Below are positions 1,861 through 2,481 of a stretch of DNA of 36,041 bases, piece after piece (the first letter of the stretch is position 1; each line of letters starts with the position of its first letter). The position numbers and the translations under genes were made by a program. Origin of the DNA: Chroococcidiopsidaceae cyanobacterium CP_BM_ER_R8_30 (GTDB taxonomy: Bacteria > Cyanobacteriota > Cyanobacteriia > Cyanobacteriales > Chroococcidiopsidaceae); contig JAFASY010000201.1 in NCBI GenBank assembly GCA_019244235.1, positions 1 to 36,041 of the forward strand, read 5' to 3'. The notes below the pieces were generated by a model, which saw only the letters and a program-made list of their open reading frames with translations, had not been told where the DNA came from and did not search any database.

Positions 1861-1876
1861 TGTTACAACAGATACA
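1861..1876. promoter_or_regulatory. NtcA-like binding site upstream of the glutamine riboswitch
   Basis: TGTTACAACAGATACA fits the NtcA consensus TGTA-N8-TACA at seven of eight defined positions. It ends 10 nt before the first base of the riboswitch at 1887, so it would overlap or abut the promoter core. In Synechocystis, NtcA represses the gif genes from promoter-overlapping sites, so a repressor role is the natural guess. The transcription start is not mapped. Confidence 0.5.
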
Positions 1877-1886
1877 GAAATAAAAA

Positions 1887-1959
1887 CGTTCATCTCCTCT
1901 AGAGCCATAAGGCCTGACTGAGGAGACGGAAGTAGGGACTTGTCCTGAAGGAACGCGCC
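1887..1959 (+). promoter_or_regulatory. Glutamine riboswitch (glnA / downstream-peptide motif)
   Basis: The RNA has the layout of the cyanobacterial glutamine-II riboswitch. P1 pairs CGTTC at 1887-1891 with GAACG at 1951-1955. P2 pairs TCTCCTC at 1893-1899 with GAGGAGA at 1920-1926 and carries an inner GCC/GGC hairpin. The signature ACGGAAGTAGG follows at 1926-1936, a short AGG...CCT helix comes next, and the conserved TGAAGGAACGCGCC closes the motif at 1946-1959. The family binds L-glutamine and switches on small genes downstream when nitrogen is plentiful; in Synechocystis it controls gifB. Here a 47-codon gene starts 34 nt after the motif, with its ribosome binding site in that spacer. Confidence 0.88.
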
Positions 1960-1992
1960 CCAATCACAACAACTTCCTTGGAGGCGATTAAG

Positions 1993-2136
1993 ATGAAACC
2001 TACTACTCACGCTCAGTCTGTCCAAGAACGATACCGTTATCTTATGGTGGCCGATCCCCAAGCACTCAAGCGACGCCAGCAATGCATATTAATGCGTGGT
2101 TTGCAGCAAATTGACTTCGACACTTTGTCTGCTTGA
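1993..2136 (+). CDS. gifA: IF7-like glutamine synthetase inactivating factor (small protein)
   Basis: A 47-aa basic protein directly behind a glutamine riboswitch, with TTGGAGGCG about 8 nt before the ATG. The core LMVADPQALKRRQQCILMR resembles the IF7/IF17 core (LMM...Q.IK.RQQ.ML.R). Arginines R15, R28 and R35 have the 13- and 7-residue spacing of R8, R21 and R28 of Synechocystis IF7, which, as I recall, are needed for binding glutamine synthetase. IF7 is about 65 aa, so this protein has a shorter C-terminus. IF proteins block type I glutamine synthetase when ammonium is abundant, and the riboswitch plus NtcA-like site match that role. The homology call rests on alignment by eye; it could be another short peptide of the downstream-peptide class. 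Confidence 0.62.
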   Translation: MKPTTHAQSVQERYRYLMVADPQALKRRQQCILMRGLQQIDFDTLSA

Positions 2137-2241: not shown

Positions 2242-2481
2242 ATGACTCAAAAGCCACATCAGCCAGTTGATTTACATTTGTCAGTCCATGAAAGCGCTGA
2301 CCCTAGCGTTATCAGCTCTAATCCAGAGCAAGAAGCTTCTGGAGTGTCGAATGACTTAAATGACTCCGTTCATGATGACGAAAACGTAGACGTTCCTCAT
2401 CCAGGATTATTTGATCCTGCTCAAGATGATGAAAATGTTGTAGATCGTCAAGTTGGCATCGCTAATCTCAGCGCTGGCTGA
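2242..2481 (+). CDS. Small acidic hypothetical protein
   Basis: A 79-aa, strongly acidic, hydrophilic protein with no signal peptide or membrane segment. AAGGGG lies 5 nt before the ATG. It contains two similar units (VHDDENVDVPHPGLFDP and AQDDENVVD), suggesting an internal duplication of a D-D-E-N-V motif. The protein is probably disordered. It starts 105 nt after the IF7-like gene on the same strand, so co-transcription is possible but not shown. I do not recognise the family. Confidence 0.55.
   Translation: MTQKPHQPVDLHLSVHESADPSVISSNPEQEASGVSNDLNDSVHDDENVDVPHPGLFDPAQDDENVVDRQVGIANLSAG

What the first reader, a model, noticed from the sequence alone, without database searches (positions are those of the whole stretch)
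1861..2136. Glutamine riboswitch driving an IF7-like glutamine synthetase inhibitor, with an NtcA-like site
Three independent signals line up in 276 bp: an NtcA-type palindrome, a complete glutamine-II riboswitch and a 47-aa protein whose R15/R28/R35 spacing equals R8/R21/R28 of IF7. In Synechocystis the riboswitch is known on gifB, and NtcA represses gifs. Here both controls act on an unusually short IF-like protein beside transposon and pseudogene debris. It could be a new minimal form of the inactivating factor.
Basis: partly seen in the sequence, partly recalled or inferred. Interest (0 to 1): 0.85.

Follow-up and report, generated by a model that had tools for sequence, protein, structure and literature searches.

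The report
Glutamine-sensing leader on mini GS inhibitor
A cyanobacterium carries two very small relatives of the proteins that switch off glutamine synthetase, each behind a glutamine-sensing RNA and a nitrogen-regulator site, so the cell can probably brake ammonium use when glutamine is plentiful; the parts are known but this combination is an uncommon variant.

Summary
An NtcA-like box (1862-1875) lies 9 nt before it. The 47-aa ORF (1993-2136) is a distant homologue of GS inactivating factors: NCBIfam IF7A E 7e-6, below that model's cut-off, with three arginines at IF7 spacing. A 43-aa paralogue has the same box and aptamer; dN/dS is roughly 0.16. These are the only convincing IF-family matches in the 97%-complete assembly. 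In 60 genomes 44 have the aptamer, 80 matches; 20 of 80 precede short IF-like proteins, so shortness is not unusual. Seventeen of the 20 lack the box within 60 nt and have a PirA domain downstream (one match weak); the other three, both of ours and L056, have the box and no PirA. Our cores score best with IF7A and IF17 cores, not with the PirA-linked short IFs. Most likely: a tail-less IF, repressed by NtcA under nitrogen hunger and translated when glutamine is high, inhibits GlnA. New variant of a known kind.

The parts
1862..1875 (+). NtcA-like box GTTACAACAGATAC overlapping a -10-like hexamer TACAAC (1864-1869); box centre would be -7.5 for a start at about 1876 (start site inferred)
   Evidence: a strict box lies 20-32 nt upstream of the aptamer in 49 of 80 leaders
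1885..1959 (+). type-1 glutamine riboswitch aptamer (RF01739)
   Evidence: 51.7 bits, model positions 1-53 of 53
1956..1963 (+). anti-Shine-Dalgarno strand CGCCCCAA right after P1 of the aptamer (overlaps the end of the Rfam match)
   Evidence: predicted helix with 1978-1986, duplex -12.2 kcal/mol; support across leaders is moderate, see full report
1978..1986 (+). ribosome binding site region UUGGAGGCG, predicted paired with 1956-1963
1993..2136 (+). 47-aa IF7A/IF17-like glutamine synthetase inactivating factor core (R15, R28, R35), without the C-terminal tail of IF7 and IF17
   Evidence: dN/dS roughly 0.16 against the 43-aa paralogue

Best explanation
A glutamine- and 2-oxoglutarate-controlled gene for a stripped-down glutamine synthetase inactivating factor. 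Under nitrogen limitation NtcA sits on the box over the -10 region and blocks transcription. When nitrogen is ample NtcA leaves, the mRNA is made, and glutamine bound to the type-1 aptamer frees the ribosome site, which otherwise pairs with the strand just behind the aptamer. The 47-aa protein then binds GlnA through its three arginines and slows ammonium assimilation. A paralogue (43 aa, contig C304) works the same way. Shown by sequence: aptamer, box, homology of the window protein, paralogue, selection on the protein, anti-SD pairing potential, presence of GlnA and NtcA genes. Inferred: NtcA binding, the direction and mechanics of the switch (taken from the published gifB case), and GS inhibition.
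For: RF01739 over cut-off. Six such leaders in this genome, five of six with the strict box at -23 or -22. Box 20-32 nt before the aptamer in 49 of 80 leaders, 27 boxes at exactly -23. NCBIfam IF7A E 7.3e-6 for the window protein and 0.0032 for the paralogue. Profiles without own rows: IF7A-type cores 32.9 and 26.5 bits, IF17 cores 29.3 and 20.1 bits, with 0 of 5000 shuffles as high in each test, also with arginines kept in place. R15, R28, R35 invariant in 13 rows, 11 not own. dS 1.24, dN 0.20 between the copies. Anti-SD helix perfect in 35 of 75 leaders. GlnA (472 aa) and NtcA (387.6 bits) present. Published: IF7 needs three arginines, gif genes are NtcA-repressed, the gifB box is centred at -7.5, the gifB riboswitch activates (PMC6316151).
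Against: The IF7A match is far below the family's cut-off (26.1 against 70 bits) and there is no Pfam match. The paralogue alone is not above shuffles with the short-IF and canonical IF7 profiles (11.8 bits against a best shuffle of 14.7; 6.9 and 7.2 bits, reached by 12-22 of 5000 shuffles). Folding with the aptamer forced did not open the ribosome site, so the switching step is not reproduced. In the 40 leaders without the perfect anti-SD pair, true pairs (-6.58 kcal/mol on average) beat swaps but are weaker than pairs with consensus partners (-7.28 and -8.32). The leader folds only modestly better than shuffles (z -1.69, 10 of 200 as good). The tail conserved in many IF7 and IF17 proteins is missing. 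No expression or binding data.
Confidence: 0.75

Rival explanations
1. The protein is an IF relative that no longer inhibits GS well (tail lost) and serves as a weak competitor or binds another partner.
For: The C-terminal tail of IF7 and IF17 is absent; the core has diverged (16 of 31 positions identical to the nearest IF7A core; long branch and unusual composition in the tree).
Against: Both copies keep the three arginines and look constrained; they are the only convincing IF matches in the assembly, so a competitor would have nothing to compete with unless a gene lies in a gap.
Confidence: 0.15
2. The ORF is a PirA-like PII-binding small protein rather than an IF.
For: Glutamine aptamers in relatives are followed by PirA domains in 28 of 80 cases, and PirA is a small basic protein of similar size (51 aa, PMC8092223 passages).
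Against: NCBIfam gives IF7A and no PirA match for both own proteins; separate PirA genes lie on contigs C51 and C45.
Confidence: 0.03
3. The leader is a relic beside a decayed region and the ORF is not expressed.
For: A broken SDR-like frame lies directly upstream.
Against: Aptamer complete over 53 of 53 model positions; box, ribosome site and anti-SD strand in register; dN/dS roughly 0.16 between the two copies.
Confidence: 0.05

Closest known systems
gifB/IF17 of Synechocystis sp. PCC 6803
   Same: NtcA-repressed promoter with the box centred near -7.5, type-1 glutamine riboswitch in the 5' UTR, IF core with three arginines (PMC6316151)
   Different: IF17 has 149 aa (PMC7760959) with an N-terminal DUF4278 part; the window protein has no such part
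IF7A (NCBIfam NF052599), the IF of Nostoc/Anabaena sp. PCC 7120
   Same: Only NCBIfam match (E 7.3e-6); cores of IF7A proteins from family f33 score best (32.9 bits; three of these proteins match NF052599 at 113-123 bits); same arginine spacing
   Different: The model has 66 positions with a tail that the window protein lacks; 13 loci of this type scanned held no Rfam riboswitch (an IF7A-like protein was read out in 11 of the 13)
Short IF7-like proteins followed by PirA behind type-1 glutamine riboswitches (seen here in relatives)
   Same: Short, without the IF7 tail, three arginines, RF01739 leader
   Different: No strict NtcA box within 60 nt of the aptamer and a PirA domain follows (17 of 17, one match weak); their cores fall on the other side of a 100/100 split
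[quoted passage not shown]
   Same: Small basic NtcA-repressed regulator of nitrogen metabolism (PMC8092223, passages)
   Different: No PirA match for the window protein or its paralogue

Membership tests
Type-1 glutamine riboswitch (RF01739) | Covariance model match over the gathering score | tested here: met
   51.7 bits against 35
Type-1 glutamine riboswitch (RF01739) | Binds L-glutamine and changes translation | not testable with these tools
   needs in-line probing and reporters
Glutamine-II riboswitch (RF01704) | Covariance model match | tested here: not met
   window scan at gathering score gave only RF01739; no match in the genome (where no control genome rang)
GS inactivating factors (IF7/IF17 core) | Homology to the IF core | tested here: met
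   E 7.3e-6; profiles without own rows; the paralogue alone fails with two of the four profiles
GS inactivating factors (IF7/IF17 core) | Three arginines at +0/+13/+20 | tested here: met
   R15, R28, R35 invariant in 13 rows; spacing as in the canonical IF7 proteins
NCBIfam IF7A equivalog NF052599 | Score over the curated cut-off of 70 bits | tested here: not met
   26.1 bits, model positions 2-36 of 66
IF17 (gifB) | DUF4278 N-terminal part | tested here: not met
   no Pfam match
GS inactivating factors (IF7/IF17 core) | Inhibits glutamine synthetase by binding | not testable with these tools
   needs purified proteins
NtcA-repressed promoters | GTA-N8-TAC-like box over the core promoter | tested here: met
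   GTTACAACAGATAC, one mismatch, conserved position; NtcA gene present; core promoter placed by eye
NtcA-repressed promoters | NtcA binds and represses | not testable with these tools
   needs a gel shift and an ntcA-depleted strain

The most novel reading that the evidence does not exclude
Tail-less GS inhibitors under glutamine riboswitches arose at least twice: once as an IF7A/IF17-type core under an NtcA box (this genome, where it has become the only GS brake of its kind), and once as a short IF in an operon with PirA. In relatives the same aptamer class therefore ties GS inactivation and arginine synthesis (IF plus PirA, or DUF4278-PirA) to one glutamine signal.
Probability: 0.55. Interest if true: 0.7.

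Novelty: new variant of a known kind. Interest (0 to 1): 0.55.

Why it matters
If true, about 45 residues with three arginines are enough for a natural GS inactivating factor, which tests what the IF tail and the DUF4278 part are for. It also suggests that glutamine sensing by RNA reaches well beyond gifB: of 80 type-1 aptamers examined, 20 precede short IF-like proteins and 28 are followed by a PirA domain, so glutamine may set arginine synthesis too.

Tried and rejected
Glutamine-II class: rejected. PirA identity for the window protein: rejected. First idea that the own proteins are IF17 stripped of DUF4278: IF17 cores scored better than short-IF and canonical cores, but IF7A cores of family f33 scored better still; those rows were picked by a search with the own proteins, so the comparison leans towards them, and the tree does not resolve which is the parent. 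In a leave-one-out test of a simple nearest-group rule only 7 of 17 IF17 cores were assigned to IF17, so that rule was not used. 'Unique number of riboswitches': six is high but 6 of 291 genomes of the class have six or more. Own-type orthologues: a two-row profile of the own proteins over 388 genomes of the order gave nothing but the own pair above 38 bits, and scans of named genomes and viral contigs found none. Forced-aptamer folding did not explain the switch. Sequence search found no convincing solved structure for the window protein or a canonical IF7. AlphaFold of the 47-aa protein on 5 rows gave helices 10-20 and 22-46, mean pLDDT 71.9, pTM 0.36: too uncertain to use, no fold search made. 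Weaker IF matches in the genome (C215 16.9, C64 12.0, C67 11.3 bits; C194 13.6 bits with the IF7A model) were dropped; only C215 was looked at, and it shows no sensible small ORF by eye.

Full report
Observation. The window stretch carries, in order, an NtcA-like box (1862-1875), a glutamine aptamer (1885-1959, RF01739, 51.7 bits), a GGAGG ribosome site and a 47-aa ORF (1993-2136).

The genome. G000 has 5.54 Mb in 328 contigs, 97.18% complete, and six RF01739 aptamers. Oriented, they precede: the window 47-aa protein (L004); a 43-aa paralogue (L001); a 93-aa DUF4278 protein (L005; PF14105, 57.9 bits); and three small proteins of 76-94 aa that look membrane-bound by eye and match no family convincingly (L002, L003, L006). 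Five of six have the strict box GTWN8TAC at -23 or -22; L002 has only the loose GTN10AC form. The genome also has NtcA, a GlnA of 472 aa and two PirA genes on other contigs than the aptamers. A profile of 13 IF-like proteins finds L004 and L001 (68.5 and 62 bits, both in the profile) and then nothing above 16.9 bits; the same profile found IF matches in 55 of 60 genomes. Six aptamers is high, but 6 of 291 genomes of the class have six or more.

The protein. NCBIfam names IF7A at E 7.3e-6 (26.1 bits, cut-off 70). R15, R28 and R35 are invariant in 13 aligned rows, 11 from other genomes, and sit at the spacing of R8, R21 and R28 in canonical IF7 proteins fetched here. A profile from the 11 non-own rows gives 21.7 bits; the best of 20,000 shuffles gives 14.7; the paralogue alone reaches only 11.8. 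With IF17 cores the two score 29.3 and 20.1 bits and with IF7A cores 32.9 and 26.5, and none of 5000 shuffles reaches these, also with arginines fixed; with short-IF and canonical IF7 cores the window protein scores 16.0 and 15.5 bits (again 0 of 5000), but the paralogue only 6.9 and 7.2, reached by 12-22 of 5000. The pair differs by dS 1.24 and dN 0.20 over 40 codons (dS is near saturation, so the ratio of about 0.16 is rough), which points to selection on the protein. The C-terminal tail (YW..IQGK and YDRS or similar) of IF7, IF7A and many IF17 proteins is missing. Other tail-less or tail-altered IF7 relatives exist (L100, L104, L109-L111, some in L113-L115).

Relatives. In 60 genomes, own included, 44 have the aptamer, with 80 matches, 79 over the cut-off (L083 is the one below). 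I fetched all 80 and sorted them by the first ORF of at least 35 aa starting within 95 nt, with simple rules: 20 short IF-like, 19 IF17-like, 15 DUF4278-like without an IF core, 26 other. The IF profile used there was built from members of the short group, so membership of those rows is by construction. The strict box is present within 60 nt in 3 of 20, 17 of 19, 13 of 15 and 16 of 26. For 13 short-IF loci I looked 300 nt upstream: L011 and L032 have a box-like sequence farther up, at -67 and -103.

PirA. A PirA domain lies within 700 nt after the aptamer in 28 of 80 (that profile was made from PirA genes, at least two of which are the ones downstream of L013 and L016). In 17 of the 20 short-IF loci it is a separate downstream ORF or match. 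With the curated model NF050139, 16 of these 17 reach the cut-off (13, L044 only narrowly; L025, L036 and L059) and L018 does not (25.8 bits). In 11 loci it is the C-terminal part of a protein with DUF4278 (PF14105 found in 11 of 11: L048, ten); NF050139 reaches its cut-off in 9 of these 11 by position, and L064 and L066 stay below. The three short-IF loci without PirA are exactly the three with the box: both of ours and L056. In the tree the cores of these three also fall away from the other 13 short-IF cores, across a split with support 100/100; but with 31 columns most other forks are unresolved, the bootstrap had not settled, the own pair has unusual composition and a long branch, and two long-branched IF17 rows join the short group. 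L056 matches IF7A at 50.7 bits, also below the cut-off.

Named examples. Leader plus short IF occur in Hydrococcus rivularis NIES-593, Pleurocapsales cyanobacterium LEGE 06147, Aphanothece sp. CMT-3BRIN-NPC111 (MAG) and a Chroococcidiopsidaceae MAG; a PirA-like ORF follows by eye in LEGE 06147 and Aphanothece, while none stood out in the other two (the MAG is very likely the L018 locus). That MAG's contig has the same length as G010:C51, which suggests that family f1, to which the window genome belongs, is Chroococcidiopsidaceae; this is an inference.

The leader. The strand behind P1 (CGCCUC) can pair with the ribosome site (GAGGCG): perfect in 35 of 75 leaders with a spacer of at least 22 nt. 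Among the other 40, true pairs bind better than permuted ones (7 of 2000), some by changes on both sides such as CACCUC/GAGGUG (L034, L040), but they bind less well on average than with consensus partners, and several barely pair. In the window the pair is CGCCCCAA with UUGGaGGCG, -12.2 kcal/mol. This supports control of translation, but folding with the aptamer imposed does not open the site, so how glutamine frees it is inferred from the published gifB case (PMC6316151). Taking TACAAC (1864-1869) as the -10, the start would be near 1876 and the box centre near -7.5, the value published for gifB; the start site is my inference.

Literature. I read sections 2 to 2.6 and most of 2.7 of PMC6316151, and passages of PMC8092223, PMC11288750, PMC7760959, PMC8400943, PMC9964548, PMC12475003, PMC9196836 and PMC13362535. 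The original riboswitch paper (PMC6212724) was not held. The listings and the passages seen showed no report of a riboswitch on a short IF plus PirA operon, or of a DUF4278-PirA protein under a riboswitch; PMC8092223 mentions PirA versions with extended N-termini of unknown function. PMC6212724 or supplements, which I could not see, may list such loci. The review says the aptamers are mainly found with DUF4278 genes.

Verdict. The site is real and its function can be predicted fairly well; the class label and the claim of unusual shortness were wrong. It is a new variant of a known kind.

Noticed in passing
L011, L012, L013, L016, L017, L018, L023, L025, L026, L028, L030, L032, L033, L035, L036, L044, L059: Type-1 glutamine aptamer, then a short IF7-like ORF, then a PirA domain: a probable operon joining GS inactivation and arginine control (17 of 20 short-IF loci; 16 of 17 over the NF050139 cut-off, L018 below).
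   Followed up: partly
L043, L045, L048, L049, L050, L053, L057, L062, L063, L064, L066: DUF4278 fused to a C-terminal PirA domain behind NtcA box and glutamine aptamer: built like IF17 but with PirA in place of the IF core (PF14105 in 11 of 11; PirA over the curated cut-off in 9 of 11; box in 11 of 11).
   Followed up: partly
L093, L095, L097, L099, L116: Proteins with two IF-like cores in tandem (84-100 aa by the script's start), whose middle arginine is leucine in both cores.
   Followed up: no
L002, L003, L006: Three small, apparently membrane-bound proteins of unknown family behind glutamine aptamers in the window's genome; L002 and L006 share a YxGGA ... AGFTxKxTT pattern by eye.
   Followed up: no
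L031, L041, L081; L014, L046, L067, L069, L074, L076, L078; L054, L055, L068, L071, L077, L082, L083: Three further groups (made by eye) of uncharacterised small proteins recur behind the glutamine aptamer in relatives; one member of each scanned gave no convincing family.
   Followed up: no
window 2242-2481: 79-aa acidic ORF 105 nt after the IF-like gene, no family match; could share the transcript, as no terminator-like site was found in 1700-2560.
   Followed up: no
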